Source of the DNA: a virus
Length of the DNA stretch: 64,000 nucleotides
Virus record (IMG/VR): IMGVR_UViG_3300035390_000014
Location: 1 to 64,000 of that record
Direction: 5' to 3' (one strand)
In this document: positions 3,101 to 47,991 of the stretch, piece by piece
Numbering within the stretch: the stretch's first letter is position 1
How the letters are laid out: every line of letters starts with the position of its first letter
Position numbers and translations under genes: made by a program
Notes under the pieces: model-generated
The model's database searches: none
What the model saw: the letters and a program-made list of their open reading frames with translations, nothing else
Told to the model about the DNA's origin: nothing

Positions 3101-3190
3101 GTTCTCCAAAAGAGCTGCATACTCTTGCTGTCGAATATTAAAGATATGATTATTTCCGCCAACTTTATATATCGGATTTTCTATAGCCAA
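128..3190 (-). CDS. Multisubunit RNA polymerase beta subunit (first phage RNAP)
   Basis: Phage homologue of bacterial RpoB, 1020 aa against about 1340 in E. coli. Conserved blocks occur in the expected order: RICPVDTPDRDNCGVL (bacterial RICPIETPEGPNIG) near residue 365, GYNYEDGIIISDR near 550, GDKVGNRHGNKGVIS near 730, VNPLGTIGRMNVGQ near 770, and GRKNKGGQRCGEMET near 940. The lysines and histidine of the active-site block NRHGNKG are kept. The start is TTG, placed by an AAAGGAG site nine bases upstream. It follows the beta-prime gene by 15 bp, so both should be co-transcribed. A second beta homologue is at 36870-40961, so this phage encodes two polymerases. Its distance from structural genes suggests a non-virion, middle/late-transcribing enzyme like the phiKZ nvRNAP (inference). 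Confidence 0.95.
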   Translation of the reverse strand: MAIENPIYKVGGNNHIFNIRQQEYAALLENVRKILIPAEELGFELMEFRLKEPRFSNGEISKTLKKNLIIRFQKGTAKIDLSMQIPALVDDNYIVINGRKKIPLFQLFDIPVVTRGKSIKIRTNVATLMIFPQKESPYVYISILGRKVPLFLIMFGYYGIEVMNEKFGLSDMVDAPIMTPESTLYEKLIYDLKCFYDESRGLTQDDIIKEIGRNYSKFNARVKGEDIIYSLDLILKVDPISTIFFQTDNIIDEIVYTLNGGDLDDTDLKNKRIRCLEYVVLAKISKAVFDMCMSNRTARQPKFNVNSTQILSECNVSDIVQFDFAINPIDEATKLSRTSLVGPGGFNRQNVPEHLRDIMPSMFGRICPVDTPDRDNCGVLQNLIPNVPLDENLRFTDEFLEKQPISIPVSMVPFLEHDDQTRLQMASSQMRQAIMLQNFDKPMIKSGCENLYTKYTQFVKIAKKSGKVIHLDSNYIIALYDDKTIEIFNITYRKIYISNLDVFNIYVKQGDKFKAGEILAESNFCKDGSINIGKNLLTCVMVYYGYNYEDGIIISDRVQKEGLFTSVHFEDMSFDIPMNKVLLSLDKNADYKPLPKIGDRIAKGTPYAILKEFPNNQMDFFDIFKEERKLLSKQDVIITEVNLYVNQWCVDIPQYNDWVESVINSQQDEELKIKVIIEENLEKDQVKPFIKANNLDLFSNTGKFKKKGEEVLGIRVEMFGIFFRPIQIGDKVGNRHGNKGVISTIIPHEKMPMLPDGRHADIIVNPLGTIGRMNVGQLFEYHMGMSLFDLKKQMKHIIHGEDQSVINHELSQDQIQILVKDYVLGYIKIIDNTEIGWYHQQFEEQMPLIIDDEWIDNMSIIQPPFESVNMEKTKQALAYTNTQFTYHVFDPQSNSYPVNSVTCGYGYFFKMVHISETRLAARGIGSYARKTLQPLAGRKNKGGQRCGEMETAALIGHNAKFNLREFLTTKSDCIDLKNKFIREQLESDLGRLEEDDHVDSIVPESVKLLNANLTALGLKR

Positions 3191-3205: not shown

Positions 3206-5920
3206 TTAAATTTCTTCGCCGCATAAGATTTTATCCATAACTCCATGATATAAACCAGAATCAAGGACACCACGTATGATATGTTTCTTTGGATTTGAAA
3301 ATGCTAAACCCATCAACCAGCTTTCATTTGAGGGCACAGTTTGAACAGATAGGTATTTAGGAACTACATTTTCTCGACCCTCAACCAATCTCCATTTTTT
3401 ATTATTATACCACATCAATTGAGATACAACACATTCAAAATGTACATGATGAATTGTTCTACTAAGGTTATAACAAGTGTACAACTTGGCAACCAATTCT
3501 TCTGGTTTAGTTCCTTTAGGAAATTTATGCAAAAGTTTAGACACTGTTGATAAATCAGCAACAATATCATGCTGTTTCATATCCTCACCTTCACTTTCCT
3601 TATCCAAAACAGCAACACCAGATGTATGAAATGTACGTAAAACCAACTGAGTATTACATTCTCCAAGACTCTGAGCTGCAATAACTCCAACAAACTCAGA
3701 ATCCAACATCTCATACAATTCCCCATAACATTTGGTGCATATTTTAGGGTTCTTACAATATATTGGACTTCTAACTTCAACAATCTTTCCTACATAACCA
3801 AGATAGTTATACTCGGTCATTTTAATCAGAGTACCATCTTCTTTAAACCATTTTCCAATTAACATCTTTGCTTTCTTTTCATCATCAACAAATACAGAAA
3901 GTAAATCAGTTGTTCCACAATCCTCAGTGTCTTTATCAATTTGAAGATTAGCACAAGTGAATATTAATTTTCTTGAAAGGTATCCAGATGTTCCTGTGTT
4001 CAAAGCAACATCAAGTAACCCCTTTCTAGAACCATTGGTAGAATCAAAGAACTCTCTTGGTGTTAACCCATTGATAAAACTATGTTTAATGGGTCTTTCA
4101 ATAATCTCACCTCTAAAGTTTGAAATAAAACCTCTGGTTAAAACTATCTGTCTTACCTGATCCCAACTCCCTCTAGCACCAGATTCTATCATGTATGCGT
4201 ATTTAAAATGATCTCTAAGATACTGAGTTGTTTCTTCCTTAGATACCATATCAAGTTGTTCTCTAATATCATCGCCTTCATACAATGAATCTCTTTTCTC
4301 AAGTGACCCTTCAATGAAACAATCATCTAGTGCAAGAGTTGCCCCAAATAATGTTGAATATTTAAATCCAAGAAATTTAATTTTATCGAGAACAGCAGCA
4401 GTAATTTCATTTGAATATCTATTATTAACATCAGTTAAATAGTAATTAATTTCTTTACCACCAACTTCTTCATCAATTATATGATAGTCAGATGGAAAAC
4501 AATCATTCAATAACTTTCTATCAGCTTTAATTGTTGTCCCTTTATATTCAACATCATACTGTAGATCAGGAAATATTTTATGAGTAACAGCATAGATACC
4601 CAATATAACATCCTGACTTGGTGTAGTTGACAAACTTCCATTAGAAGGATTGGTAAGATTTCTTATAACCAACAATCTATCCAACACTTCTTGCTTTGCT
4701 TCTTCACTGATTGGAACATAAACAGCCATCTGATCCCCATCAAAATCTGCATTAAATGGAGGGCATGACAATGGATGTAGTTTAATAACTTTTTCTAAAG
4801 TAACTTTGGTTTTATATCCCAAAAGACTTAATCTATGTAATGAAGGCTGTCTGTTTAAAATACATACCTCATTTACAGCAATCTCTTCACATATATTAAA
4901 AAGAATTGGGTTGCCAACTTCAATACAATTATCAATAAAATCAATTGAATCATTAATTTTCTTAAATCTTCCAATCTCAATAATTTTCTTTGCGATTTTC
5001 AATTTAAATAATTCAAGAAACATCAAATAAGGTAATGCACAATATTCCATTTCTAATGTAGGATCAGGAACAATTACTGCTCTACCAGAAAAATCAATTC
5101 GTTTACCTAAAATATTACCACGAATCAATCCTTCTTTTTTAGACATTTTCTCAAGAATATAAGCATACAACTCTTGAATATCTTTTTGAAGCTGTCTGTA
5201 ATAATTGTAATATAAATTTCTATCAACTCTTATATCACATGGAGTTTCTCTCATTGCTTCTTTTTTAGTAAGTATTTGAGTATAGTATCTATTAATTTTA
5301 TCCGAAGATACTTGTCCTTTCTTACTAACTTTCTTTGATGCAGGCCTTAAATCAGGAGGTAATACAATAACCTGACCGATTATTAATTGATCTATATTTT
5401 CTTTAACAACTTCCCAAGAAGTATTTCCTATACCCAAACCATAATCAGCTAAATCTTCAATTAATATTTTAATTGCTTCAGTACCGACTAAAGCATTTCT
5501 ATCAATATTTTCAGGGTCTTGTTTTTCAACCCTCCATGATTCTTCTTCATCATCATATACTAAAATACTGTTTTCATCTTTCATCAATTGATCCAATGCA
5601 GTCTTTACTTGACGACCACCAAGATCAATTACAAGATCATAAAACAATGGGTTCACAACCGGGATTGGTAGAATAATTTTAGCAAATCTTTTTCTTCTCT
5701 CATTGCTATTAACAACATCAACTCCACAATCTGCACAGGTTCCACCAGAACCTGATATACCCCAATAGGTTCCACATTGACAAGTATAATTCTTTTCTGG
5801 ACCAAATATCTGCTCAGAAAATAATCCTGTCGCATGAGGCAACTTCTTGTCGTAGATCTTAGTTGTTGTGATTTCTTTTAAGTCTTCACAAAACTCGTCA
5901 AAATTTAATAATGTAGGCAT
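3206..5920 (-). CDS. Multisubunit RNA polymerase beta-prime subunit, single chain (first phage RNAP)
   Basis: RpoC homologue of 904 aa (E. coli about 1407). It keeps an N-terminal zinc ribbon (C47, C49, C62, C65 in CQCGTYWGISGSGGTCADCG), GKRIDFSGRAVIVPDP, the switch region RQPSLHRLSLLGY, and the Mg-binding loop FNADFDGDQMAVY near residue 392 with all three aspartates. It also has GARGSWDQVRQ and the trigger-loop/bridge-helix block LGECNTQLVLRTFHTSG near 763. After the trigger loop a shortened C-terminus still resembles the beta-prime C-terminal segment, so the chain is unsplit. That differs from the second polymerase and from phiKZ. The long bacterial insertion between trigger loop and C-terminus is missing. 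Its ATG has an AAAGGAT site. Confidence 0.95.
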   Translation of the reverse strand: MPTLLNFDEFCEDLKEITTTKIYDKKLPHATGLFSEQIFGPEKNYTCQCGTYWGISGSGGTCADCGVDVVNSNERRKRFAKIILPIPVVNPLFYDLVIDLGGRQVKTALDQLMKDENSILVYDDEEESWRVEKQDPENIDRNALVGTEAIKILIEDLADYGLGIGNTSWEVVKENIDQLIIGQVIVLPPDLRPASKKVSKKGQVSSDKINRYYTQILTKKEAMRETPCDIRVDRNLYYNYYRQLQKDIQELYAYILEKMSKKEGLIRGNILGKRIDFSGRAVIVPDPTLEMEYCALPYLMFLELFKLKIAKKIIEIGRFKKINDSIDFIDNCIEVGNPILFNICEEIAVNEVCILNRQPSLHRLSLLGYKTKVTLEKVIKLHPLSCPPFNADFDGDQMAVYVPISEEAKQEVLDRLLVIRNLTNPSNGSLSTTPSQDVILGIYAVTHKIFPDLQYDVEYKGTTIKADRKLLNDCFPSDYHIIDEEVGGKEINYYLTDVNNRYSNEITAAVLDKIKFLGFKYSTLFGATLALDDCFIEGSLEKRDSLYEGDDIREQLDMVSKEETTQYLRDHFKYAYMIESGARGSWDQVRQIVLTRGFISNFRGEIIERPIKHSFINGLTPREFFDSTNGSRKGLLDVALNTGTSGYLSRKLIFTCANLQIDKDTEDCGTTDLLSVFVDDEKKAKMLIGKWFKEDGTLIKMTEYNYLGYVGKIVEVRSPIYCKNPKICTKCYGELYEMLDSEFVGVIAAQSLGECNTQLVLRTFHTSGVAVLDKESEGEDMKQHDIVADLSTVSKLLHKFPKGTKPEELVAKLYTCYNLSRTIHHVHFECVVSQLMWYNNKKWRLVEGRENVVPKYLSVQTVPSNESWLMGLAFSNPKKHIIRGVLDSGLYHGVMDKILCGEEI

Positions 5921-8748: not shown

Positions 8749-8780
8749 TTTTAGTTCTCCTAATGTTTAATAAATTTAAT

Positions 8781-9458: not shown

Positions 9459-9470
9459 AATAACAATCTC

Positions 9471-13088: not shown

Positions 13089-13090
13089 AA

Positions 13091-13450: not shown

Positions 13451-13461
13451 TTAATCTCCTT

Positions 13462-34128: not shown

Positions 34129-34149
34129 TTATGTATATTAATATATATA
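34129..34149 (-). promoter_or_regulatory. AT-rich 21-bp repeat, copy 1 (candidate promoter or operator)
   Basis: The 21 bases at 34129-34149 (beginning TTATGTATATTAATATATAT) occur identically at 47965-47985. Both copies lie in the two large intergenic gaps, just after one gene's stop and upstream of the next transcription unit on the minus strand. AT-rich elements of this type act as promoters for phage multisubunit RNA polymerases such as phiKZ's; the role here is inferred. Confidence 0.5.
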
Positions 34150-34170
34150 GTTCTCTGTTTTAAATAATAA

Positions 34171-35648: not shown

Positions 35649-35707
35649 AATAAGTAACTCCTTTATTTTAATTAATTATATCATTTATAATATGTTCTAA
35701 TTTTTTT

Positions 35708-36085: not shown

Positions 36086-36346
36086 TTACTTACTTTTATC
36101 TGATACTTGTTTATTTAATTTTGCTTTCCAATATCTTGAAATTGAATCCTGTTTAGTTGGATTTTTCATTCCTTTAGATTTCCAGTATGCAGCTTTTCCT
36201 GTCTCATGTCTTTTTTTAGCAGCTGGATTATTTTTCATTCTTTGCTTCCAATCGCTTACACTTCCAGTTCTTGCTCTTGCTGCTGCTGTTGCTATTGCTG
36301 ATATTCCCTCAACTACTTCTTTTTTTAGCAATAAATAAAATATCAA
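36086..36346 (-). CDS. Basic C-terminal ORF, possibly made by frameshift from the preceding gene
   Basis: 86 codons with no ATG and no ribosome binding site at the 5' end; the listed start is a TTG inside the preceding gene. The frame runs through a seven-A run (36320-36326) shared with the end of that gene. The protein is Ala/Arg-rich then strongly basic (MKNNPAAKKRHETGKAAYW, SISRYWKAKLNKQ). An internal ATG at MKNNP would give a 51-aa protein. Either a frameshift-made tail of the gene at 36309 or a short independent gene. Confidence 0.5.
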   Translation of the reverse strand: MIFYLLLKKEVVEGISAIATAAARARTGSVSDWKQRMKNNPAAKKRHETGKAAYWKSKGMKNPTKQDSISRYWKAKLNKQVSDKSK

Positions 36347-36866
36347 ATATATAAAAAATTAAATCAATCATAAGAAATAAAGCCATATAAACAACAAATG
36401 GAGTACCACCTGCTGCTGAAAAAAATGCAGCGATTACAATACTCAATAGCATATTTACCCATAAATTTTTATTTGCTCGGTCCCAATCTATAACAGTTTT
36501 ATTGATCTGTCTAGCAATAGATTTTATTTGCTTTTCATCTTTGGCTGCAATAGCTACAAGAGATTCTAATGGAGCTTTTATTTTAGCAGGCACATTTTTT
36601 AATTCTTTTGCAGCAAATTTTCTCTTTTTTTCATAATTAGGAATATTTTTTTTAGCCGCTTCATCAACTCTTTTAGGATCCATTTTAGGAACATGGGCTG
36701 TAATTTTTTTAAAACTTTCAATATCTTTTACACCTTTTAGTTTAGTAACTAAAGATTTAGCTTTATCACCAATATTTTTTTTAACAAAATCTCCAAATCC
36801 TTCTTGAATTAAATTTAAATCCTCTTGTAAGTAACTTTCCTGTAAATAACTTTGTGTATCAATCAT
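36309..36866 (-). CDS. Membrane protein of the structural cluster
   Basis: 185 aa. N-terminus SYLQESYLQEDLNLIQEGFG resembles a targeting segment, followed by a charged helical middle and two transmembrane helices near the end (LLSIVIAAFFSAAGGTPFVV, ALFLMIDLIFYIFDILF), then KKRSS and stop. The same architecture recurs at 41304 and 53216. The gene follows the second polymerase beta gene by 3 bp. The stop comes 9 bp after an A7 run that may allow frameshifting into the next ORF. Confidence 0.7.
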   Translation of the reverse strand: MIDTQSYLQESYLQEDLNLIQEGFGDFVKKNIGDKAKSLVTKLKGVKDIESFKKITAHVPKMDPKRVDEAAKKNIPNYEKKRKFAAKELKNVPAKIKAPLESLVAIAAKDEKQIKSIARQINKTVIDWDRANKNLWVNMLLSIVIAAFFSAAGGTPFVVYMALFLMIDLIFYIFDILFIAKKRSS

Positions 36867-36869: not shown

Positions 36870-39800
36870 TTATCTCCATATCATTAAACTAATAAAATAA
36901 CTATTTAATAAATCTCTTACTGGTGATGCTTTGGGGTTTCTATATTTTGCACTACCTGTTTGTATAATATCTGATAATATTTCATTTTTTGTTTGAATGT
37001 CATCGCTTAGTGGTCCAAAAAATTCAGCAAGCAAATTTGGACAATTATATGATATAAAACTATAAGTATCAAGCTCACCCATTCTTTGTCCACCTTCACG
37101 TTTCTTACCAGCAGTAGGTTGAAATGTTTTGCTAGTCATTGGACCTGTTGATCGAGCATGAAGTTTATCCTTTGCAATATGTTCTAGTTTTAATATATAC
37201 ATGTACCCTATTGGCACTTTACTTTTTGTCTTAGTATTAAATTCTGGTAAAGACAAATTATAGCCTGATTTAAGGCCCAGTGATTTTAAACATGCTATTA
37301 TTTCTTTATAAGCAGGAGCTTTAAAAGGAGGAATTAAAATAGTCATACTACCTGAATCTTTAACTTGTTTCATAAATGTTTTAAATCGAACATCATTCAA
37401 TGCTTTAAATTTATTAATTAAATTTGTACTAAATTCTTTATTTTTTGTCATATCAAGATTTGGTAAAACTTTATGTAATAAAGCAATTACTTTAGGTTTA
37501 TCATTCAATTTAATTATTTGTCTACCTAATTCTTTTGAAATTAAACCGGTATATAATTCATATAGCTGACCAATATTCATACGACCAACTACACCGATAG
37601 GGTTTAAAATAATATCAACTTGATCTCCTGTTGGTGTTCTAGGCATAAGCTCATCCTTTTCGATAAGAGAAACAATACCCTTTGCTCCATGTCTATTGGT
37701 TAATTTATCACCAACTCCTACAGGCAATTCTTGCTCTAATTTAAACCTAATCATTACACCTGGAATAGTATCTCCTTTATGAGAAAACTTTTCATTATCT
37801 TTTAATCCATATCTTGTTCTTGTTCTTTTAGACAATTTATCTAATTCAGGAAATTTTCCTTCCTTTAGATTATTAAATACTTCTATATCAACTATTTTTC
37901 CACCAGGTGATTTTTTAATTAAATGGCCAGATACTATTTCAGTTCCTTCTTCATCTTCATCAAATCCAATTAATTGTTCAATTTCACCAATACTTTTTCT
38001 TAATAAAGGTTCGCCTTTTATAGTATCTTTTCCTAATTCATTTATAAAAACAACTCTATCTTCTTTGCCAATTTCAACTTCCTCTACTATACCATGTAAT
38101 GAATTAAGAACTCCCTCCCTTACAATTCTTTCAGATAATACAATACCATCCTCAAAATTAAATCCTTTGTATGGCATTAATGCAACACACATACTTCTAC
38201 CTAATGCAATCGCACCACCTGAAACACAAGACCCTTCTGCAATAATAGATTTTTCTTTTACAACTGATCCGGCCTTTACTGTAGGTTTAAAAACACTTAA
38301 TGTATCCTTTCCAGATCCAGATCTTAAATGAACAGGAGTTACTGGTATAACTTTATTGCCTCCAGTACTACATTGAATATATATAGCATCATCAGTTACT
38401 TTAGTTACTTTTCCATTACAAGGAGATTTTTTAATAAAGTCATCTGATAAAACACTTGTTAATATAGATTCATATCCTGATTGAATCATTGGTTGTTCTG
38501 GGTTTCTTAATGGAACCGCTTGTCTCATTTGACTACAACCAAACATTACTCTGTTCCCATCATCATTTTCAACAAATGGAATTTGAGCAGCTGTAGTTGA
38601 TAACATCCCAGAGTTCTCACCTTCTTTTTTCTCTTTGGATTGTATAATACCTCTTGCTGATGTTATAAAAGCATCAACAGTTAGCTGTTGTACAATACCA
38701 ACATTTTCACCTTCTGGTGTATCAAGTGTATCAATATTACCAAACATTGAGTCATGAACATTACGACCAGCATTTTGAATAGCTTGTTTATCAGGAATAC
38801 CACCAACGGCTTTACCTACTGGTGACACTCTTGTTTTAGTAGCCATTTCCTCAATAGGATTAGCATATTCCATATCAGCAACAATTTCTGAGTTAATAAA
38901 ATCGCTTAATACTTTGGTTTGAGAGATATCAAATATAGCTTTTTTATTACCAGATAGTACTTGTTCTTTATATTCAGTATGAGCTGCTAAAATTTGTTTT
39001 TGAGCAAGATGAACTATAACCTCAGAGTTTCTTATTCTCTGATTAGATACATCATTTCTTTTTTGTGTAAATCCTTCTACAACTTTAGTTGACATATATT
39101 TCATTATCAAATGTAATTCACTTGGTAATTGTTGATTAATTAATACTTGTTTTGCAACAGGATCAACTATATTTTCTAAATTGGATTGAATTAAGAATGT
39201 TGAATTAATACGGCCAGACATTTTAATAATTAAATTATTAAAATATTCATGAGATAAAAATTCTCCATTAATTTTTAATGAACTAATATCGACATGAATC
39301 AGTGATTGTACAATTTCTTCTTTTAGCTTCGTGTTAATATTTTCAAACAAAATCCATTGTTTATCATCAACTTTAACACTCCATTTGGTCTCTTTATCAG
39401 GTCTTTGGTCTGTTATCTTATACCTAATATCATATAATTGACATGACTCTTTAAAACCAAAACTGAAGCCTAAAAGGACTAATATTGGGACTTTATACGA
39501 TCCAATGTAAGCTTCTAAATATTCTTCCCTCTTAGTTCTTTTACTCCATATATGGAAAGTTGAATAAGAACTTTCAAATTTACTATCGTATAATTTAGGA
39601 AATGTTATTGGACATAAAACTAACTGATTAATAAGACATTTCTTTTTACCATTAATTTTAAAAGTTCCATCATTAGAAACATTAGGAACATCTAATAATA
39701 TTTCATGTTCTCTTTTAAATTTATCAACAACAACTACATGAATAGTACTAATATCAGATGGAGATAGATCGCCCGGTCTAATATGTTTCTTAACAACCTT

Positions 39801-40961
39801 AACACTTTTAAATGTTAATGGAACACCTTTTGTTTCCAAAACTTTAAATGAATTAACAATATCTTTCTTTAAATTTGTTTCAAAGTCAATTTTTCTTTTT
39901 TCAAAAATATGCTCAGGAGATTTATTTCCAACAGCTTTAGCTACATTGGATAATTGGATAACAATGTCTTCTGATGTGGATTCTGTTTTCTTAGGTTCCA
40001 ATAATTCATCTACATATTTTTTATCAATAACTTTCAATCCCATTGTTTTTTTAGAATCTGGAATACTAACTGCAGTTTGACGAGCTTTAATCATATCACC
40101 AGTTGATCTATATAATGCAGAAGCTATTGCTATATCTTTAGCATCATTATTTGTTAATTCATTGTTATGTGTTTTATCCAGTGATTTAGGATTTTTTTCA
40201 AAGAATTTTTGAATAGATTGTTTGAATTTAGATTTATTAGAAGGATCGATATCGCCTTCTATTTTTTTAATAATTATATTAGATGCTGTCTCTACTTTAC
40301 CATCAACTTCTTCTTCACCATCAATAACTTTGATATTTTTAAGATATAGATTAACTTTATTAAATTTTACATCTCTGTTTTTTATTAGTAGTCTATAACG
40401 GGAAGATGAATCACTAATAGTATTCATTATCAAATGATCATAATATAAATTATTTTTTTTAATTTCTAATATAAATGGGAACATTTTTCTATCAATATAT
40501 TTTGGAACATTTTTAGTTGCATCAACCGAGTATATAAATACTTTTTCATAACTATTTGGAAATGAACTAAAAATTTTATCAACTATATTTTTTAAAAGAA
40601 ACCCACCTCTTGCTCTATAGTTTTTCATTTTATATGATTCTTCCATTGATTGTAAAAACGGACTAAGATCATATATCAAATTCTGTCCTTGAGGTATTGC
40701 TTGAATCGAACTTGAGGCAACCAATCCATGAGCCTTATAAGTATTTTTAATTTCCGGAGTCATAGAACTAAATGGTATTTTAGTTTTTGGGATAATAACC
40801 TTTTTTGCATCAACTCGTAATAAATTCAATTTTGAATAATCATCTACAAATGTCGAATTTTCACTAAAGTAAACAATCAAAAAAGGATTCTTCTGAATTT
40901 GCGGAAATCTAATACCATTAACCACATGAGTAAATGGTTTCAGTGCTTTAAATTGAATCAT
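36870..40961 (-). CDS. Multisubunit RNA polymerase beta subunit (second phage RNAP, candidate virion RNAP)
   Basis: 1363 aa. The first 400 or so residues are unlike bacterial RpoB. From about 430 the familiar blocks appear: GTFKINGKKKCLINQL, TRVSPVGKAVGG and NIDTLDTPEGENVG (bacterial cpiETPEGpNIG), KGFNFEDGIVLSERI near 937, GDKLTNRHGAKGIVS near 1090, LNPIGVVGRMNIGQ and GGQRMGELDTY near 1292. It is a diverged paralogue of the 1020-aa beta at 128-3190. The neighbours are structural-type membrane proteins and a split beta-prime. This placement suggests a virion-carried polymerase for early transcription, as in phiKZ (inference). It overlaps the nuclease gene upstream by 14 bp. Confidence 0.93.
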   Translation of the reverse strand: MIQFKALKPFTHVVNGIRFPQIQKNPFLIVYFSENSTFVDDYSKLNLLRVDAKKVIIPKTKIPFSSMTPEIKNTYKAHGLVASSSIQAIPQGQNLIYDLSPFLQSMEESYKMKNYRARGGFLLKNIVDKIFSSFPNSYEKVFIYSVDATKNVPKYIDRKMFPFILEIKKNNLYYDHLIMNTISDSSSRYRLLIKNRDVKFNKVNLYLKNIKVIDGEEEVDGKVETASNIIIKKIEGDIDPSNKSKFKQSIQKFFEKNPKSLDKTHNNELTNNDAKDIAIASALYRSTGDMIKARQTAVSIPDSKKTMGLKVIDKKYVDELLEPKKTESTSEDIVIQLSNVAKAVGNKSPEHIFEKRKIDFETNLKKDIVNSFKVLETKGVPLTFKSVKVVKKHIRPGDLSPSDISTIHVVVVDKFKREHEILLDVPNVSNDGTFKINGKKKCLINQLVLCPITFPKLYDSKFESSYSTFHIWSKRTKREEYLEAYIGSYKVPILVLLGFSFGFKESCQLYDIRYKITDQRPDKETKWSVKVDDKQWILFENINTKLKEEIVQSLIHVDISSLKINGEFLSHEYFNNLIIKMSGRINSTFLIQSNLENIVDPVAKQVLINQQLPSELHLIMKYMSTKVVEGFTQKRNDVSNQRIRNSEVIVHLAQKQILAAHTEYKEQVLSGNKKAIFDISQTKVLSDFINSEIVADMEYANPIEEMATKTRVSPVGKAVGGIPDKQAIQNAGRNVHDSMFGNIDTLDTPEGENVGIVQQLTVDAFITSARGIIQSKEKKEGENSGMLSTTAAQIPFVENDDGNRVMFGCSQMRQAVPLRNPEQPMIQSGYESILTSVLSDDFIKKSPCNGKVTKVTDDAIYIQCSTGGNKVIPVTPVHLRSGSGKDTLSVFKPTVKAGSVVKEKSIIAEGSCVSGGAIALGRSMCVALMPYKGFNFEDGIVLSERIVREGVLNSLHGIVEEVEIGKEDRVVFINELGKDTIKGEPLLRKSIGEIEQLIGFDEDEEGTEIVSGHLIKKSPGGKIVDIEVFNNLKEGKFPELDKLSKRTRTRYGLKDNEKFSHKGDTIPGVMIRFKLEQELPVGVGDKLTNRHGAKGIVSLIEKDELMPRTPTGDQVDIILNPIGVVGRMNIGQLYELYTGLISKELGRQIIKLNDKPKVIALLHKVLPNLDMTKNKEFSTNLINKFKALNDVRFKTFMKQVKDSGSMTILIPPFKAPAYKEIIACLKSLGLKSGYNLSLPEFNTKTKSKVPIGYMYILKLEHIAKDKLHARSTGPMTSKTFQPTAGKKREGGQRMGELDTYSFISYNCPNLLAEFFGPLSDDIQTKNEILSDIIQTGSAKYRNPKASPVRDLLNSYFISLMIWR

Positions 40962-41304
40962 CTTTATCCTCGTAGTTGTCTAATTTTACTAAATCATTTT
41001 CTATTAATAATGTCCCTAAATCTGATCCATCTGATAGAGTGACATAAGCTTCATATCTACTATATACAGCTGATTTAACAGATGTTAAAGTAACTTCTTT
41101 ATTTAACAATAATGGTGTAACAAAATCTGTAGCTCTTTTACCATGTTCTCTTTCTGATTCTGTTTTTGGTCTCCATGTTTCAGGAGTATCAACATCTTTT
41201 AATCTGAATCTTTGTTTAGTTGTAATAGTAAATCCAAGATCGACAGTAGCATCAAAAGTATCACCATCAACAATATTAGTTACATATGCTTTATAATTAT
41301 ACAT
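40948..41304 (-). CDS. Staphylococcal-nuclease-fold (SNase) protein
   Basis: 118 aa. IVDGDTFDATVD (11-22) and FRLKDVDTPETW (33-44) are the SNase hallmark; R34, E42 and R83 (in YSRYEAYV) match the catalytic arginine-glutamate-arginine set, so it is probably active. No signal peptide. It could degrade host DNA or process nucleic acid during infection. The start overlaps the stop of the gene upstream (TAATG), and its end overlaps the polymerase beta start, so translation is coupled. Confidence 0.87.
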   Translation of the reverse strand: MYNYKAYVTNIVDGDTFDATVDLGFTITTKQRFRLKDVDTPETWRPKTESEREHGKRATDFVTPLLLNKEVTLTSVKSAVYSRYEAYVTLSDGSDLGTLLIENDLVKLDNYEDKDDSI

Positions 41305-41999
41305 TATTCACCTTCCTTCATTCTTCCTGGAGTTCCTAAGAATGTCCACATAAAAGATATTGTACTAAGAACTAATAATACTCCAGCTACTAATAAAAAA
41401 CCGCCAGTCATACCAAGAGCAACAACACTACCCCCAAACAATGCCCCTATTAAATATGTCATAAAACCTCCTATAAAAGATAATACTCCATATACAGTAA
41501 AATTTAAAGAAGAAGAATAAGGACCTTTTGTAGTAGATGTTATTGATTTTTCTATATCTTTTAGAACTTGCTCAGAAACTTGTTTAAAAGGTTGCTTTTT
41601 AATTTTAGAATTAATCATCATTACAATCAATATTGGTATTATAGCACCAGACATTGTCAAAACACTAGCCTGACCTAATGCTGCAAAAGCTCTTGAAATA
41701 TTAACGGATGCCTTCTTAACTGCTTTCAAATCAATATCCATGTCATTAGCTAATTTATATACTTTGCTATTTAATTCTTTTTCAGGTTTAACAAAGTTTT
41801 TATGTCTGCCAACAAAAGTTTCCATTTGTTTATCATTTTTAATAGAGCTAATTTTTTTTAACATATCTTTTAATTTATTAGCAGGCATGGTAGATTCATT
41901 TAATATATTATCAACACTATAATTATTATATATTTCTAACAACTCACTATATATATCATTATTAAATAAAGCGTTTAATTCATAATTGTAATTATTCAT
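41304..41999 (-). CDS. Multi-pass membrane protein of the structural cluster
   Basis: 231 aa. The first 95 residues are polar and helical. Then come about four hydrophobic segments: SVLTMSGAIIPILIVMMI, VYGVLSFIGGFMTYLIGALF, VVALGMTGGFLLVAGVLLVL and ISFMWTFL. A short basic/acidic tail follows (GRMKEGE). Strong GAGGGTGG site. Resembles the tail of the 618-aa protein at 53216 in plan. Possibly a virion membrane-penetration protein. Confidence 0.7.
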   Translation of the reverse strand: MNNYNYELNALFNNDIYSELLEIYNNYSVDNILNESTMPANKLKDMLKKISSIKNDKQMETFVGRHKNFVKPEKELNSKVYKLANDMDIDLKAVKKASVNISRAFAALGQASVLTMSGAIIPILIVMMINSKIKKQPFKQVSEQVLKDIEKSITSTTKGPYSSSLNFTVYGVLSFIGGFMTYLIGALFGGSVVALGMTGGFLLVAGVLLVLSTISFMWTFLGTPGRMKEGE

Positions 42000-42020
42000 A
42001 CTACCACCCTCTTATATTAT

Positions 42021-42740
42021 TTAATTATTTTTATATCCTTTAGCACCAAGTCTTGAGGAACTTCTACGTTTATCATCAACTAGGCTTCCAGTCATAACCT
42101 TTTCAATGATACTCTGTTCACCTCTTTCTTCAGTTATAAGACCTGTTTTAATAGCATCATTGATATTTTCAAATGCTAATCCATTTACAAAACCCTCTGA
42201 GAAAATAACCTTTTTTAGATTAACTAATATTGGGTCCCAAGTTGATCCTAATCTAGCAGATATCTGAATGTTCTTTTTATCCCTTAATACTTGGGAACAC
42301 ATAATTTCCAAATGAACTGAATCCATATCTGATAGTTTTCCATAAACTGCGAATAATTTTCTATATAGATGCCCTGCATCTTTTAATATTTCTCTACCAC
42401 CAATCAATCTTTCAACATATGAAATTTGTACGGCTGATTCTCCAGCCTCAGTTGATACTTCTAATATTGGCGAATTGGCTTCAAATTTTAATTTAACATA
42501 ATCTTTTTCAATATTTTCTCTTTCATATACAAATAATTCAAGAGCATAATCTAATGTTATATCAAATATTTTGTCGCCATATTCAGCTTTAGCTAATAAT
42601 GATTTAACCCAAATTCTCTTACCTTCTTCTTTTTCTAAGAAATTTGTTTTATCATAATTACTCATATCAATAGATAATATCATCGCTTGAGTGGTGATTA
42701 ATTGTTGTTCATGTTGTTTTAAAAATTGAGTTATTTTCAT
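42021..42740 (-). CDS. RNA polymerase beta-prime, C-terminal fragment (second phage RNAP)
   Basis: 239 aa. From about residue 110 the sequence follows the C-terminal part of bacterial beta-prime: VYGKLSDMDSVHLEIMCSQV (bacterial 'v...qgv.I.dkHiEvivrqM'), then LVNLKKVIFSEGFVNGLAFE (bacterial 'LlgItkaslateSFisaAsF') and LITEERGEQSIIEKVMTGSL (bacterial 'a..gk.D.l.glkEnVIvGrLiP'). It completes the beta-prime begun at 43423-45765, with two small genes between. A split beta-prime is the phiKZ/AR9 arrangement, while the first polymerase here is unsplit. Weak ribosome site; probably translationally coupled. Confidence 0.82.
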   Translation of the reverse strand: MKITQFLKQHEQQLITTQAMILSIDMSNYDKTNFLEKEEGKRIWVKSLLAKAEYGDKIFDITLDYALELFVYERENIEKDYVKLKFEANSPILEVSTEAGESAVQISYVERLIGGREILKDAGHLYRKLFAVYGKLSDMDSVHLEIMCSQVLRDKKNIQISARLGSTWDPILVNLKKVIFSEGFVNGLAFENINDAIKTGLITEERGEQSIIEKVMTGSLVDDKRRSSSRLGAKGYKNN

Positions 42741-42743
42741 AAT

Positions 42744-43130
42744 TTACGCCCGTTGCATTTGTTTTTGTAAACGTTCTTTCTTTTGATCCAATATCTTCTT
42801 TTTATTCGCATCTTGTTTCATTTGATTTGCTTTAGCATTCATAGCATTCTTTTTAGATGGGTCTTGCTCCATTGAGGCAGCAGCTTTAGCTTTTTTATGT
42901 TTACGATATAAATAATATGCTCCCAAGGCTGCAACTTGAGCTCCAGGAACTACTGCCATTGCGCCACCAGCTGCTGTGGCAATACCATGGCCGGCTGCTG
43001 CTCCAGCAACTTGAACTGCGGCATATTTACCAGTTCTGCCCAACTTAGTCTCTTTATCATCTTGACCTGTTTTATCCATCAAGCCTTCACGTAAACAATA
43101 GAAGGTATATTCCTCAGATAAAGTTATCAT
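42744..43130 (-). CDS. Ala/Gly-helix basic protein, virion membrane family member A
   Basis: 128 aa. N-terminus SEEYTFYCLREGLMDKTGQD, then a long hydrophobic Ala/Gly region (AAGGAMAVVPGAQVAALGAY) and YLYRKHKKAKA...EQDPSKKNAMNAKANQ. The last part lines up with proteins at 45765 and 48597 (Y-x-x-YK-x-x-KK ... DP/TP-x-x-K), so the three are paralogues. Inserted between the two beta-prime pieces. Probably packaged or membrane-active. Confidence 0.7.
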   Translation of the reverse strand: MITLSEEYTFYCLREGLMDKTGQDDKETKLGRTGKYAAVQVAGAAAGHGIATAAGGAMAVVPGAQVAALGAYYLYRKHKKAKAAASMEQDPSKKNAMNAKANQMKQDANKKKILDQKKERLQKQMQRA

Positions 43131-43135
43131 AATAT

Positions 43136-43408
43136 TTAACCCTTACAAGTTTTAGAGCATTTAGTTCCATACCCACTTTTATAACTTTTGAATTTTAATA
43201 TTTTACCGCATTTACATATTGGTCTATCACTTAATCCTTTAGATACATTATATGATCTTTCAGTTATAGTAGCAGACTTTGGTAAATAATCTGTATACTC
43301 ATATAATGCATTATAGATTCTTGGGTTATCTTTTTTTAATTTTTTAGTACTTGGTGCTTTTTCTCCATATGTATCTTGAATATAAATTGAAACTATTTGT
43401 TTATTCAT
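43136..43408 (-). CDS. Small zinc-finger-like protein inside the split beta-prime region
   Basis: 90 aa. The last 30 residues (PICKCGKILKFKSYKSGYGT then KCSKTCKG) match a C-x-C...C-x3-C knuckle often found at the N-terminus of phage homing endonucleases. No nuclease domain follows, so it may be the remnant of a homing endonuclease that once sat within the beta-prime gene, which would explain the split (inference). Strong AAAAGGGG site, so it is probably expressed. Confidence 0.65.
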   Translation of the reverse strand: MNKQIVSIYIQDTYGEKAPSTKKLKKDNPRIYNALYEYTDYLPKSATITERSYNVSKGLSDRPICKCGKILKFKSYKSGYGTKCSKTCKG

Positions 43409-43422
43409 AATAATTACCCCTT

Positions 43423-45765
43423 TTATTTTTCTAATCCAGACATTGGATCATTGTTAATTATATCTGCTAACATATCTCTTTTTATCAATGAAACAGCTCC
43501 ACCTGTATGGAATGTTTTCATGATAAGCTGTGTGCCTCTCTCTCCAATAATTTGAGCAGCAAGAATTCCAACATACGGGGTGTTATGTCTTTCTAATAAT
43601 TTACCATAACAAGTATGACAAATCTTTTGAGATTTACAGTATATAGGAGTTCTCAAACTTACAATATCTCCTAGTTTAAATTTGCCTTCATCAAATAACA
43701 TTAGCTTACCTTGTTTGATTACATAACGTCCTTTAAATCTTCCCATTAACATTTTATCTAACTTTACATCTAATGTTCTAGTTGTTCCGCAGTCTTTAGT
43801 AACCCTATCTAACTCAACTGTATTTAAAAGATATGCTAATTTACGAGACATATAGCCAGTATCAGCCGTATTGATAACCCTATCAATAATACCTTTACGT
43901 GCCCCTTGAGATGCGTCAAAGAATTCTCTATTAGACAAACCGTCTGCGAATGACCCTGATATAGGGTCTAAAACATTACCATCAGGATCAGCTATAACAC
44001 CCTTTGCAACCAATATCTGCATTGGTTGACCCCATCCTTTTGTTGATCCAGAATTAGCAAGATCACCAAACCCTGTATTATCTAAATGTTTTTCTAATAT
44101 TGTTTGAGCTTCTTCTAATAAAGTTTGAGCTTCTTCTGGGTTAGCGGTTTTTAATTTTTCTTTAATTTTTATAACAGAATCAGGTAATGCAAAATCATCT
44201 AAATTCATTGAAGGAGCCATAATTGTAGCCCATTTAAAACCAACATCTTTTAATTTATCAACAACTTGCTTTATTACTTCTCCACCGTGCTTTTCATAAG
44301 TTAATTCAATTCTAGCACCAATAGTTTTTTTAGTTGCTTGAGCTTCCATGAAACCAAGATCAGTAGGGAAACAACTATTAACAATTGCTTTACCCATTGT
44401 TGTGTTTACACCTCTATATTTAACAGCTATATATGGTTCTTTAGCATTAACTAAATCTTCATTTGATACTGCTAATGGAGAACCTGTGGCAGTTCTATCT
44501 TTTGTAATTGTGTATAAACCAGCCCAAATCTCTTTTGAAAGACCAAAAATAAATTCATTTGATGATGTACCACTTGTTAATTTCATCATTCTAGTTCTTG
44601 CTTCTTCCTGAGCTTCATTTGTTAGTGGATGATATATAGCCATTGTATCACCATCAAAATCGGCATTATGAACACCAACCTGAGTGGTTGACATAAGCAT
44701 TGTATCGCCTCTATGTAATACAGGGTTGTATGCTAAATAACTTTGAGTATGAAGAACTGGATCTCTTTTTACAACAACAATTCTACCCTTCATTGAAATT
44801 TCAGTTTGTTCAAAGAATAATTCATATAATTCTTCTGGCACTTTATCGCCTTCTTTAATACCTTTCATTACTCTTTTAACTGCTTCAACTGATAAATCCA
44901 TCCCGGTAAATTCTTTTACCCCATTTGATAAAACTTCTTTGTCAACTCTACCTGAATATAATAAACGGTGCATAATAAAAGGTTCAAATAAACCAATAGC
45001 TAATCTTAAAGGAACCCCACATTCATTTATAAGTAAATTAGGATCTGGTGTAATAACAGCACGCCCGGAAAAGTCAATACGCTTTCCAAGCATCTGTTCT
45101 CTAATAATTCCATGTTTTTTACCAATTTTAGATCTAATATAATTATCATGATCCATTACTGATTGGTGCATAGCATAATTTAATAAATCATATAATGGAC
45201 CTGAACCAGATGATCTTAGTTGTGATGCTCTTCTCATTAAAGCAAGATAAACATCATTTAAAGCATCTATCATCCAATTACCATCTTCCCCTTGTACAGC
45301 TGGTCTTAACTCAGGTGGTATAACAGGGATTTTATCAATAAAAATTGTATCATTTTTTGTTTCTCTTATAACAAATTTTATTAGTTTATCTCTTAATTCA
45401 GTCTCACCTCTCCATTTAATAGAGGGAAATAATTTAATAAACTCTTTTATACCAGTAACACCACCAGTTTCAACTATTTCTAACCTACCATCTTTATCTA
45501 ATATAAAAGATTCCTCAGTTGATATAAATTTTTCAATTTTTCTATCCAACTGAAGTAATACTCTATATACTGATGGATGAATAGCAAACCCATGTAATTC
45601 AATATATGAAAATAAAATTCTTCTATCTTTCGAACCATCTGGTCCAAATATTTCTTCGCTATATAAACCTTCCTCATGAAAATGACCAGTCTTAGTGGTA
45701 GTAATCATAGAGGTCACAGGTTTCAAATTCTGACTGAAATTAGATGGATTGAGTAATTTTAACAT
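43423..45765 (-). CDS. RNA polymerase beta-prime, N-terminal/catalytic fragment (second phage RNAP)
   Basis: 780 aa. It keeps LGKRIDFSGRAVITPDP, a catalytic loop VHNADFDGDTMAIYHP near residue 368 with all three aspartates, SGSTKGWGQPMQ, a CKSQKICHTCYGK knuckle near 718, and the trigger-helix block GERGTQLIMKTFHTGGAVS near 750, after which it stops. The C-terminal continuation is the gene at 42021-42740. The N-terminal zinc ribbon found in the first beta-prime is absent here: the GLYSEEIFGPDGSKDRR stretch runs straight on. Its start overlaps the stop of the gene upstream. Confidence 0.93.
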   Translation of the reverse strand: MLKLLNPSNFSQNLKPVTSMITTTKTGHFHEEGLYSEEIFGPDGSKDRRILFSYIELHGFAIHPSVYRVLLQLDRKIEKFISTEESFILDKDGRLEIVETGGVTGIKEFIKLFPSIKWRGETELRDKLIKFVIRETKNDTIFIDKIPVIPPELRPAVQGEDGNWMIDALNDVYLALMRRASQLRSSGSGPLYDLLNYAMHQSVMDHDNYIRSKIGKKHGIIREQMLGKRIDFSGRAVITPDPNLLINECGVPLRLAIGLFEPFIMHRLLYSGRVDKEVLSNGVKEFTGMDLSVEAVKRVMKGIKEGDKVPEELYELFFEQTEISMKGRIVVVKRDPVLHTQSYLAYNPVLHRGDTMLMSTTQVGVHNADFDGDTMAIYHPLTNEAQEEARTRMMKLTSGTSSNEFIFGLSKEIWAGLYTITKDRTATGSPLAVSNEDLVNAKEPYIAVKYRGVNTTMGKAIVNSCFPTDLGFMEAQATKKTIGARIELTYEKHGGEVIKQVVDKLKDVGFKWATIMAPSMNLDDFALPDSVIKIKEKLKTANPEEAQTLLEEAQTILEKHLDNTGFGDLANSGSTKGWGQPMQILVAKGVIADPDGNVLDPISGSFADGLSNREFFDASQGARKGIIDRVINTADTGYMSRKLAYLLNTVELDRVTKDCGTTRTLDVKLDKMLMGRFKGRYVIKQGKLMLFDEGKFKLGDIVSLRTPIYCKSQKICHTCYGKLLERHNTPYVGILAAQIIGERGTQLIMKTFHTGGAVSLIKRDMLADIINNDPMSGLEK

Positions 45766-46355
45766 TATTTCTTAGCCTTAGCTTTTTCTATTTTTTGTTT
45801 TTGTTTAATCATTTTTTGTTTTAAAATTTCTTTCTGTTCAGGATCTTTTTCAGAACTATATTTTTTCTTTAAACCTTTATATGTAAAATATAATGCCAAA
45901 AGAACAGCAGATGCACCAACGGCATATCCTTCTTTTACCAATGTCGGCGGTTTCATTTTCTTATTAAATGTCTTAGTTGATTTAGTTTTTAACGCCGCCT
46001 GACTTACAGTATTAGGAATTGCTTTATTATATTTATTTAATAATTTTGTAAGTTTAATAACTACTCCTGGTAAATGTCCATCAGGTTGTTTTTCAGCCAT
46101 TCTCTTTGCAAGTTTTAATGAAAATTCAATCATCTTAGCATCTTTATAACCATATCTATTACAAATTGGAAACAAAGTATGTTCAGATCCCTGACCCAAT
46201 TTTAAATAACAACCAGGATTTTTTTCAGCATCAGATTTTACAAATTCTGGAGATAATCTTTTTAAATCATCATGATAAGTTATTGGTGATATTAGTTTAT
46301 AGGCTGTTCTTAATAACTCAGATAAATTTTGAAATTCTTCATTTAAATTTTCCAT
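45765..46355 (-). CDS. Virion membrane family member B
   Basis: 196 aa. Polar helical N-terminal two thirds, then one hydrophobic helix (YAVGASAVLLALYFTYKG) followed by a basic helical hairpin (LKKKYSSEKDPEQKEILKQK, then KQKQKIEKAKAKK). This C-terminal plan matches the proteins at 42744 and 48597. It is the first gene of the second-polymerase unit, with a TTTTTAGAACAAA motif about 29 bp upstream and an AAAGGGAG site. Confidence 0.7.
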   Translation of the reverse strand: MENLNEEFQNLSELLRTAYKLISPITYHDDLKRLSPEFVKSDAEKNPGCYLKLGQGSEHTLFPICNRYGYKDAKMIEFSLKLAKRMAEKQPDGHLPGVVIKLTKLLNKYNKAIPNTVSQAALKTKSTKTFNKKMKPPTLVKEGYAVGASAVLLALYFTYKGLKKKYSSEKDPEQKEILKQKMIKQKQKIEKAKAKK

Positions 46356-46383
46356 ATATAAAACTCCCTTTTAGTCTTTATTA

Positions 46384-46396
46384 TTTGTTCTAAAAA
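46384..46396 (-). promoter_or_regulatory. TTTTTAGAACAAA motif (candidate phage promoter)
   Basis: The minus-strand 13-mer TTTTTAGAACAAA stands 29 bp upstream of the gene at 45765-46355 and just past a strong terminator. The identical 13-mer is at 56891-56903, with close variants at 60634-60647 and 35694-35700, always upstream of a minus-strand gene. The consistent position argues for a promoter; not tested. Confidence 0.5.
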
Positions 46397-46465: not shown

Positions 46466-47914
46466 TTAAAAGTCTAAATCGACCAATTTTGATAATTCTA
46501 TAATTTTATCATCCAATTGTCCAGAAAAGTATAATGTATAAAACTTAACCATATTACTTTCTATTTTGGAAAGAGGGATGCCTCCGTAAGGTTTACCATC
46601 AAAGATATTAAAGAAATTAACTCTTGAGGTTCGTCCAACAAAATAACTCATAATTTTATAAGGTAATATTTTGGTTTGAAAACCAAAGAAGTTATTAGTC
46701 TTGTCCTGAACATTAATAAAACCTGCTTCATTATTAACATTCTTTATTTTATAAGTAGTGGCAACTGCTGGAGAACTAGTAGGATAAAAATTCAACATTG
46801 AAAACATATCTGAATATTCATTGTGAAAAACTTGTTGTAATAGTTTTTGCAAATAAACAGACATGACTATTGAATGTTCCGGAGATAAGGTTTTGAAGTG
46901 AAAGTAAGGAATATTAGTGATTTTTGATAATAGTGGAAATACCAAACAATCGCTTAAAGGTGATATATATTCTATATCCTGAACTCTTTGTTGAAACTCA
47001 GCTAAATTTTTATCAGCAGCATCATTATTATCAACAGCCATTGGAGTTGTTTTATCAATTTCTTTATAGATATATTCATAGGCAATACCCTTCAATCTTC
47101 CAAGAGTATCATTATAACTATATGTTTTAAGATTATCAACATTCAATCCATGAATATCTTCAGTTGATACTGAATCATCATAAACTATTGTTTTCTTATA
47201 TACTGATCTAAGGAACCATTTAACTGATTCCTCAACAACTCCAACAAAGTAAGTAATTGGATTTTTATCCTCTTCACAGAGAATAAGAATTGAGTTCATA
47301 ATGAAATTGAATATTTCAACTGTATGAACATCAATTGATTTACATTGGATCATCTTGATATATTCCCACATATATCTATCAGTGAGGTTATATCTAAATG
47401 TTTTAGTTTTAACAATGTTGAATATTTTAAAAACAACATCTGTATTCATTATTTCTTCAACAAGCATATTATAAATTTTCTTATGGACTTGATTTGATAT
47501 CACAATGTCTTGTCTAATTGAGATCAATGAATATAGTTTCAAATAACCAGAAACCACCAAAATCTTTCTTATTTCAGCAGGTTCAAATAAAATTGTCCCT
47601 TTCTTAACTTTAGATCTATCAACAAATTTAGAATAATCCATATTTTGAATATCAAAATATTTATCAATGTATTCTTTTAAAATGTTGATGTTATTAGTTA
47701 TGTAATTTAAATCATCTTTGTCTTTATACTCTTCAATAAATTTAAAAAACCATTCTGAAAATTCATCACCACTTGCTTCATTTACACTTTTAATAAAATC
47801 AGTAACAATATGAAATTTGTTAGTGACTGAGGAAGATTTCAAATTAAGTTCAATAGTTTTTTCACCCAAAGACATTGACCACTTCTTCTGTTCTAATTTT
47901 TCAAACTCAAGCAT
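46466..47914 (-). CDS. Large helical protein of unknown function; candidate RNAP specificity subunit
   Basis: 482 aa, not recognised. Helical overall with many aromatic residues, no metal or nucleotide motif, and a weakly conserved-looking C-terminus (RTSRVNFFNIFDGKPYGGIP). It is a single-gene transcription unit: a promoter-like dyad upstream at 47955-47991 and a strong terminator downstream. It lies next to the second polymerase and has the size of the fifth subunits of phage polymerases (phiKZ gp68, AR9 gp226), which recognise promoters. That role is a guess from size and position; it could equally be a tail or head protein. Confidence 0.6.
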   Translation of the reverse strand: MLEFEKLEQKKWSMSLGEKTIELNLKSSSVTNKFHIVTDFIKSVNEASGDEFSEWFFKFIEEYKDKDDLNYITNNINILKEYIDKYFDIQNMDYSKFVDRSKVKKGTILFEPAEIRKILVVSGYLKLYSLISIRQDIVISNQVHKKIYNMLVEEIMNTDVVFKIFNIVKTKTFRYNLTDRYMWEYIKMIQCKSIDVHTVEIFNFIMNSILILCEEDKNPITYFVGVVEESVKWFLRSVYKKTIVYDDSVSTEDIHGLNVDNLKTYSYNDTLGRLKGIAYEYIYKEIDKTTPMAVDNNDAADKNLAEFQQRVQDIEYISPLSDCLVFPLLSKITNIPYFHFKTLSPEHSIVMSVYLQKLLQQVFHNEYSDMFSMLNFYPTSSPAVATTYKIKNVNNEAGFINVQDKTNNFFGFQTKILPYKIMSYFVGRTSRVNFFNIFDGKPYGGIPLSKIESNMVKFYTLYFSGQLDDKIIELSKLVDLDF

Positions 47915-47954: not shown

Positions 47955-47991
47955 CTATGTTATGTTATGTATATTAATATATATAACATAG
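47955..47991 (-). promoter_or_regulatory. Palindromic element containing the 21-bp repeat, copy 2
   Basis: CTATGTTAT (47955-47963) and its exact complement ATAACATAG (47983-47991) flank the second copy of the AT-rich 21-bp repeat (47965-47985). The element begins about 40 bp upstream of the ATG at 47914, in a 161-bp gap with no gene. It could be a promoter, an operator or an origin-like element. The rest of the gap to 48075 is AT-rich with TATATATATTT tracts. Confidence 0.5.

What the first reader, a model, noticed from the sequence alone, without database searches (positions are those of the whole stretch)
36870..45765. Second RNA polymerase embedded in a structural cluster, beta-prime split in two
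The beta-prime N-part (43423-45765) and C-part (42021-42740) are separated by a membrane-type protein and a zinc-finger ORF. The beta subunit follows after a membrane protein and an SNase-fold protein. It lacks the beta-prime N-terminal zinc ribbon and has a 400-aa beta extension. Position among putative virion proteins suggests a packaged polymerase for early genes.
Basis: partly seen in the sequence, partly recalled or inferred. Interest (0 to 1): 0.8.

Follow-up and report, generated by a model that had tools for sequence, protein, structure and literature searches.

The report
Ancestral-form virion RNA polymerase, T4-like phage
This bacterial virus carries two RNA polymerases of its own, and the second one is a less fragmented relative of the enzyme that giant phages such as phiKZ pack into their particles and inject to switch on their first genes, here found in a different, T4-capsid lineage known mainly for a single polymerase.

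Summary
RNAP-2 is encoded at 36870-45765 (minus strand): beta (1363 aa), beta'N (780 aa, NADFDGD, trigger loop) and beta'C (239 aa). RNAP-1 lies at 128-5920. RNAP-2 lacks the beta' N-terminal zinc ribbon and its beta has an N-terminal extension of about 350-400 aa.

The packaging idea is supported by homology, not proven. RNAP-2 groups with the virion RNAPs of phiKZ, SPN3US, AR9 and phiR1-37, and RNAP-1 with their non-virion RNAPs (concatenated mixture tree, 97/98 and 95/97). Beta'C matches the SPN3US gp244 family (virion beta'C), and its profile finds phiR1-37 g148, an annotated structural protein. The RNAP-2 operon has a terminator-insulated, AACA-type promoter like AR9 late promoters.

One part of the reading needs correcting. 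The beta' split does not define the enzyme: 29 of 35 RNAP-2-type loci keep beta' as one ORF, and splits arose repeatedly at the same linker behind the trigger loop. The core here has three chains, not four. The phage has T4-type MCP and prohead protease (mReC-like). So this is a less fragmented virion-type RNAP outside the phiKZ group, which makes the origin of the virion/non-virion pair testable.

The parts
43423..45765 (-). RNAP-2 beta'N, 780 aa: clamp N-part without N-terminal zinc ribbon, DPBB with NADFDGD, second Cys cluster (DCGT...CKSQKICHTCYG), ends about 20-25 aa past the trigger-loop FHTGG motif
   Evidence: Pfam and PDB matches; alignment to vRNAP, nvRNAP and bacterial beta'; trees
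42021..42740 (-). RNAP-2 beta'C, 239 aa, orthologue of vRNAP beta'C (SPN3US gp244 / phiR1-37 g148 / phrog_2926)
   Evidence: all 6 family members match phrog_2926; SPN3US gp244 is phrog_2926 at 1e-94; profile finds phiR1-37 g148 at 2.5e-15; hhalign to vRNAP beta'C E=1.5e-9
36870..40961 (-). RNAP-2 beta, 1363 aa, unsplit; residues 1 to about 360 are an N-terminal extension absent from bacterial and RNAP-1 beta
   Evidence: Pfam/PDB; hhalign to vRNAP betaN E=1e-41 over residues 360-1152; extension seen throughout the RNAP-2 type, absent from the RNAP-1 type
39880..40961 (-). beta N-terminal extension (residues 1 to about 360)
   Evidence: conserved in relatives; no confident fold (pLDDT 58; no meaningful PDB match); homology to the SPN3US/phiKZ extension not shown
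43136..43408 (-). 90-aa ORF with CxC...CxxxC between beta'N and beta'C; also in G006 (61% identical), absent from other relatives
42744..43130 (-). 128-aa Gly/Ala-rich ORF between beta'N and beta'C; replaced by other small ORFs or nothing in relatives
41304..41999 (-). 231-aa membrane protein (hydrophobic segments about 107-133 and 169-223) between beta'C and SNase
   Evidence: homologue in G006
40948..41304 (-). SNase-fold protein, 118 aa, overlaps beta start by 14 nt; present in some relatives only
   Evidence: PF00565 E=6e-9
45765..46355 (-). 196-aa conserved first gene of the RNAP-2 operon, immediately upstream of beta'N in relatives; function unknown
   Evidence: no PDB match
36309..36866 (-). 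185-aa protein after beta with an acidic leader ending LIQE|G and a C-terminal hydrophobic stretch; possible internal head protein (weak lead)
46376..46392 (-). promoter-like motif A (TAGAACAAATAATAAAG) 20 nt upstream of the RNAP-2 operon; resembles AR9 late/nvRNAP AACA promoter
   Evidence: motif core 29 copies genome-wide vs 0.2 expected; same place in L003, L005, L008; AR9 consensus from PMC5312081
46415..46454 (-). intrinsic terminator insulating the RNAP-2 operon from the gene upstream
   Evidence: sequence; RNA fold -21.7 kcal/mol, z=-6.7
47967..47986 (.). motif B (ATGTATATTAATATATATAG, one mismatch), near-palindromic AT element; candidate early (vRNAP) promoter or operator
   Evidence: 7 exact copies genome-wide vs 0 expected
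3206..5920 (-). RNAP-1 beta', 904 aa, unsplit, with N-terminal zinc ribbon; nvRNAP-like
128..3190 (-). RNAP-1 beta, 1020 aa, no N-terminal extension; nvRNAP-like

Best explanation
RNAP-2 is a virion-type multisubunit RNA polymerase, orthologous to the vRNAP of phiKZ/SPN3US/AR9/phiR1-37 phages but in a less fragmented form, in a T4-capsid (mReC-like) phage lineage that also carries an nvRNAP-like RNAP-1. Shown here: the two enzymes, catalytic motifs, family placement, absence of the zinc ribbon, beta N-terminal extension, and an insulated operon with an AACA-type promoter. Inferred: RNAP-1 transcribes the RNAP-2 operon late; beta, beta'N and beta'C assemble without alpha or sigma (the extension perhaps acting as head-targeting domain, as proposed for SPN3US gp241); the enzyme is packaged, ejected with the DNA and transcribes early genes. 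The split of beta' behind the trigger loop is a secondary, tolerated break whose two products complement in trans.
For: Family preference: RNAP-2 beta'N matches vRNAP beta'N better than nvRNAP beta'N in AR9 (8e-30 vs 3e-16), phiR1-37 (2e-26 vs 2e-12) and LPJP1 (1.5e-32 vs 5e-17); RNAP-1 shows the reverse in phiR1-37 and LPJP1. Trees: beta' RNAP-2+vRNAP UFBoot 100 or 84/94 under the mixture model; concatenated 97/98, with RNAP-1+nvRNAP 95/97; RNAP-2+nvRNAP rejected p=0.015. Zinc ribbon deleted at the same place in RNAP-2 and vRNAPs. Beta'C belongs to the gp244 family; gp244 is the head-associated beta'C and gp241 has a ~400-aa extension proposed to target the head (PMC5105663). phiR1-37 homologues g178, g099 and g148 are annotated 'phage structural protein'. 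Operon promoter resembles AR9 late AACA promoters and is conserved. Of 35 RNAP-2-type loci none has the zinc ribbon; 43 of 44 RNAP-1-type loci do; at least 16 contigs in that list carry both. No sigma70 region 2 in five genomes.
Against: No virion proteomics or transcription data exist for this phage. Beta' alone does not reject RNAP-1+RNAP-2 as sisters (p=0.38), and the concatenation does so only marginally (p=0.055); branches are long. A beta tree under a simpler model put RNAP-2 outside v+nv (support 71). The extension shows no detectable homology to the SPN3US/phiKZ extension. The AACA motif lacks the T at -1 of AR9 and its start sites are unknown. RNAP-2 subunits carry no obvious prohead-protease leader.
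Confidence: 0.72

Rival explanations
1. RNAP-2 is a lineage-specific duplicate of RNAP-1 used inside the cell for middle or late genes and not packaged; likeness to vRNAP is convergence or long-branch attraction.
For: Beta' AU test does not reject RNAP-1+RNAP-2 (p=0.38); concatenated p=0.055; RNAP-2 has no obvious head-targeting cleavage leader.
Against: Shared zinc-ribbon deletion, gp244-type beta'C, beta extension, consistent reciprocal preference for v versus nv subunits, 97/98 support in the concatenated tree.
Confidence: 0.15
2. The split and interposed ORFs mark a mobile-element invasion that is inactivating RNAP-2 in this phage.
For: Variable ORFs occupy the junction; G006 has an HNH/DUF7487 insertion inside beta' beside NADFDGD.
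Against: All three reading frames intact with catalytic residues, high identity across relatives, tight gene coupling (gaps -14 to +21 nt), and at least four separate changes of state, some splits with directly adjacent genes, which argues for tolerated splitting.
Confidence: 0.05
3. RNAP-2 is packaged but acts only as an ejected host-takeover or structural protein, with early genes left to host RNAP.
For: No experimental evidence on promoter use; the N-terminal extension has unknown function.
Against: Complete catalytic core conserved; no sigma region 2 found in five of these genomes; strong AT-rich promoter-like motifs that are not sigma70-type.
Confidence: 0.08

Closest known systems
Virion RNAP (vRNAP) of phiKZ-type jumbo phages: SPN3US gp241/gp218/gp240/gp42/gp244; AR9, phiR1-37, LPJP1
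   Same: beta' without N-terminal zinc ribbon, gp244-type beta'C, beta N-terminal extension, nearest relatives in trees, partner nvRNAP in the same genome, no sigma or alpha recognised
   Different: Beta is one chain (two in SPN3US); beta'N and beta'M are one chain; canonical NADFDGD is kept; T4-type capsid and S77 protease; most relatives have beta' wholly unsplit; packaging untested
mReC: multi-subunit RNAP-encoding Caudovirales (Weinheimer and Aylward 2020, PMC7481178)
   Same: Gp23-type MCP (PF07068), Terminase_6N TerL in relatives, metagenomic T4-like phages with beta and beta' resembling RNAP-1
   Different: That study does not mention a second RNAP or virion RNAP; its 800-aa minimum would discard the 780-aa split beta' of RNAP-2
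rep_vMAG_21 of a hydrothermal mat with RNAP1 and a second beta gene (PMC10159854)
   Same: Two RNAP genes in one mReC-like viral genome noted
   Different: Second gene not identified as vRNAP type, no beta' partner or mechanism described
Salmonella phage Arash
   Same: Multisubunit RNAP found in virions by mass spectrometry (PMC10585845)
   Different: One RNAP found; beta fused to the N-part of beta'; branches elsewhere in the trees

Membership tests
phiKZ-type virion RNAP | beta and beta' homologues closer to vRNAP than to nvRNAP or bacterial RNAP | tested here: met
   beta alone unresolved
phiKZ-type virion RNAP | beta'C subunit of the SPN3US gp244 family | tested here: met
phiKZ-type virion RNAP | no N-terminal beta' zinc ribbon | tested here: met
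phiKZ-type virion RNAP | long N-terminal extension on beta homologous to that of SPN3US gp241 | tested here: inconclusive
   extension present; homology not detectable
phiKZ-type virion RNAP | five-chain core with beta split and beta' split after the DPBB | tested here: not met
   three chains here, two in most relatives
phiKZ-type virion RNAP | present in the virion | not testable with these tools
   homologues are virion proteins in phiR1-37 and SPN3US
phiKZ-type virion RNAP | transcribes early genes from AT-rich early promoters | not testable with these tools
   candidate AT-rich motif B only
mReC Caudovirales | Gp23-type MCP (PF07068) | tested here: met
   G000:173947-175110 E=4e-34,
mReC Caudovirales | Terminase_6N TerL | tested here: inconclusive
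   6 of 7 records yes; G000 none, its record ends beside RNAP-1
mReC Caudovirales | beta and beta' in the published mReC clade | not tested
   published alignment not at hand; RNAP-1 is the likely match
phiKZ/AR9-type jumbo phage group | phiKZ-type capsid, chimallin or related core genes | not tested
   MCP is T4-type instead

The most novel reading that the evidence does not exclude
The virion/non-virion RNAP pair is older than the phiKZ/AR9 group: a T4-capsid lineage keeps both enzymes with largely unsplit subunits, so packaged multisubunit RNAPs are a widespread second class of phage early transcription and the fragmented phiKZ enzymes are the derived state.
Probability: 0.5. Interest if true: 0.8.

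Novelty: new variant of a known kind. Interest (0 to 1): 0.62.

Why it matters
Reviews (PMC7598289 of 2020, PMC13282480 of 2026) state that it is unknown whether vRNAP and nvRNAP arose by duplication or by two acquisitions, and the 2020 review states that no vRNAP had been purified. A family of shorter-branched, two- or three-chain relatives with intact subunits gives sequences that can be placed in trees and enzymes likely easier to express. It also implies that a metagenomic lineage described for one polymerase carries a second, virion-type one that length filters can miss, so host-independent early transcription may be far more common. Recurrent splitting at one linker behind the trigger loop shows how fragmentation of RNAPs can start.

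Tried and rejected
Tried without result: AlphaFold of beta'C (pLDDT 56; only a weak SI3-tail-like hit) and of the beta extension (pLDDT 58; PPK2-like hits with TM 0.2 not credited); hhalign of beta'C against single bacterial or gp244 sequences before family profiles were used; the extension against the vRNAP extension; searches for known families in the conserved 482-aa and 196-aa neighbours as specificity-factor candidates. T4-like capsid-targeting leaders: a loose pattern is not enriched, a tighter one is (7/308 vs 4/2103) but was chosen after seeing the data, so it is kept as a weak lead. Rejected: the split as a shared derived trait of this clade and phiKZ, because it is nested in unsplit lineages and needs at least four changes; the interposed genes as the necessary cause of the split, because L007 and L178 are split with adjacent genes; the four-chain core.
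Full report
Setting. The window is positions 1-64000 of a 202,719-base IMG/VR virus record. The genome has a T4-type major capsid protein (PF07068, E=4e-34, G000:173947-175110), a T4-type prohead protease (PF03420, 2.5e-10) and a portal protein. Six of the seven records of this group have a Terminase_6N TerL; this record does not, and it ends next to RNAP-1. This matches the markers of the 'mReC' phages (PMC7481178).

What is there. RNAP-1 lies at 128-5920: beta 1020 aa and beta' 904 aa, unsplit, with the N-terminal zinc ribbon. RNAP-2 lies at 36870-45765: beta'N 780 aa, beta'C 239 aa, beta 1363 aa. Catalytic NADFDGD, the trigger-loop start FHTGG and the beta GDKLTNRHGAKG segment are intact. 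Baseplate OB and amidase genes lie just upstream.

Beta'C. The 239-aa protein has no Pfam or direct PDB sequence match, but all six family members match phrog_2926 (best 3e-7, window 0.0016), and SPN3US gp244 is that family (1e-94). gp244 was identified genetically and by mass spectrometry as the missing beta'C of the virion RNAP (PMC5105663). The family profile picks out phiR1-37 at 2.5e-15, gene g148, annotated 'phage structural protein'. Family against family, hhalign gives E=1.5e-9 for vRNAP beta'C, 9e-6 for RNAP-1 C-termini and 0.016 for bacteria. phrog_2926 does not ring in 14 control genomes.

Which known enzyme. RNAP-2 beta'N prefers vRNAP over nvRNAP beta'N in AR9, phiR1-37 and LPJP1; RNAP-1 prefers nvRNAP in phiR1-37 and LPJP1 and, in AR9, finds nvRNAP beta'N and no vRNAP beta'N. 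The N-terminal zinc ribbon is missing at the same place in RNAP-2 and in the vRNAPs of AR9, phiR1-37, LPJP1, SPN3US and phiKZ, with a similar GSxxR linker; RNAP-1, bacteria and phiR1-37 nvRNAP keep it, while AR9 and LPJP1 nvRNAP also lack it. RNAP-2 beta aligns to the vRNAP betaN family from residue 360 on, E=1e-41. Trees: beta' RNAP-2+vRNAP 100, 84/94 with a site mixture; beta unresolved; concatenated RNAP-2+vRNAP 97/98 and RNAP-1+nvRNAP 95/97. RNAP-2+nvRNAP is rejected (p=0.015), RNAP-1+RNAP-2 only marginally (p=0.055), and not by beta' alone (p=0.38). The placement is therefore good but not final.

How general. A scan with the RNAP-2 beta' family kept 79 IMG/VR loci. They fall into two types: 35 RNAP-2-type loci, none with a zinc ribbon, beta about 1355-1420 aa with the N-terminal extension where complete; and 44 RNAP-1-type loci, 43 with the ribbon, beta about 1000 aa without the extension. 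At least 16 contigs in this capped list hold both types; all seven genomes do as well.

The split. In 29 of the 35 RNAP-2-type loci beta' is one ORF (28 of about 1000-1380 aa plus one truncated locus, L186); six are split (two of them near-copies), as are this window and G006. On the tree the split states are nested in unsplit lineages and need at least four changes. All breaks fall in the linker between the trigger loop and beta'C, near the border of beta'M and beta'C in phiKZ-type vRNAPs. Between the halves lie different small ORFs or none. So the split is real but secondary and recurrent, and it says little about function. In a few relatives beta is broken as well (L160, L180, L181).

Expression. 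An intrinsic terminator (-21.7 kcal/mol, z=-6.7) precedes the RNAP-2 operon, followed by a motif TAGAACAAATAATAAAG 20 nt before the first gene. It belongs to a genome-wide promoter-like family TAGAACATATTATAAAT (core 29 copies, 0.2 expected), also upstream of the MCP gene, and stands at the same place in L003, L005 and L008. AR9 late promoters are AACA-(6N)-TA/G, attributed to nvRNAP, and AR9 early promoters are AAATATATATTAT-(6N)-G, attributed to vRNAP (PMC5312081). The RNAP-2 operon thus looks late, as a packaged enzyme requires; the match is partial. A second element, ATGTATATTAATATATATAG (7 exact copies, 0 expected), shares ATATATATTA (on one strand) with the AR9 early motif and is a candidate early promoter or operator.

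Mechanism. Shown: the parts, their intact catalytic motifs, their family and their operon. Inferred: late synthesis, assembly without alpha or sigma, packaging (the beta extension perhaps as head-targeting domain, as proposed for SPN3US gp241), ejection and early transcription. No sigma70 region 2 was found in five of these genomes.

Known or new. vRNAP/nvRNAP pairs are known from phiKZ/AR9-type phages; mReC RNAPs are known; one vMAG with two RNAP genes was noted without identification (PMC10159854). In the papers searched I found no report that a T4-capsid lineage carries a virion-type RNAP with unsplit beta and mostly unsplit beta'. The 800-aa filter of the mReC study would have removed the split beta' of this window. 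New variant of a known kind.

Noticed in passing
window 6770-13773 (-): Two ThiF/E1-like proteins (E=4e-13, 7e-19), a weak JAB peptidase match (below cut-off) and a weak Prok-E2_D match in a row next to RNAP-1: possible phage-borne ubiquitin-like conjugation genes.
   Followed up: partly
L139-L141 (G000 about 104-164 kb): A tmRNA and 26 tRNA genes, one with a CTA (amber-reading) anticodon called tRNA-Pyl by ARAGORN.
   Followed up: no
G000 genome-wide, e.g. 35683-35699 (-), 173634-173650 (+): Promoter-like motif TAGAACATATTATAAAT, core 29 copies against 0.2 expected.
   Followed up: partly
34131-34150, 47967-47986 and further sites in G000: Near-palindromic AT element ATGTATATTAATATATATAG, 7 exact copies, in both orientations to the neighbouring genes.
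   Followed up: partly
L009:409-1657 (G006): Beta' of a close relative is interrupted beside NADFDGD by a DUF7487/HNH ORF and an intein-like C-terminal sequence.
   Followed up: partly
L160, L180, L181: In these relatives the RNAP-2 beta is itself broken into two ORFs; in L181 258 aa of the N-terminal extension stand alone.
   Followed up: no
G000:92524-93545, 128102, 172396; L008:13325, 18538: N-terminal leaders like KYLQYIQE|S resembling T4 internal-protein leaders (MKTYQEFIAE|A, from memory); tight pattern enriched at N-termini, chosen post hoc.
   Followed up: partly
window 46466-47914 (-): 482-aa protein strongly conserved upstream of the RNAP-2 operon in relatives, no convincing match in PHROGs, Pfam or PDB.
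   Followed up: partly
window 14551-15594 and 22478-23503 (-): Radical-SAM (QueE-like) and PTPS/QueD proteins: possible deazaguanine DNA modification pathway.
   Followed up: no
L015 (Salmonella phage Arash): Beta is fused to the N-part of beta' in one 1525-aa chain, with the rest of beta' separate.
   Followed up: no
phages collection, e.g. OR844998.1, MT836236.1: Several records labelled as phages hold bacterial rpoB/rpoC and look like host contamination.
   Followed up: no
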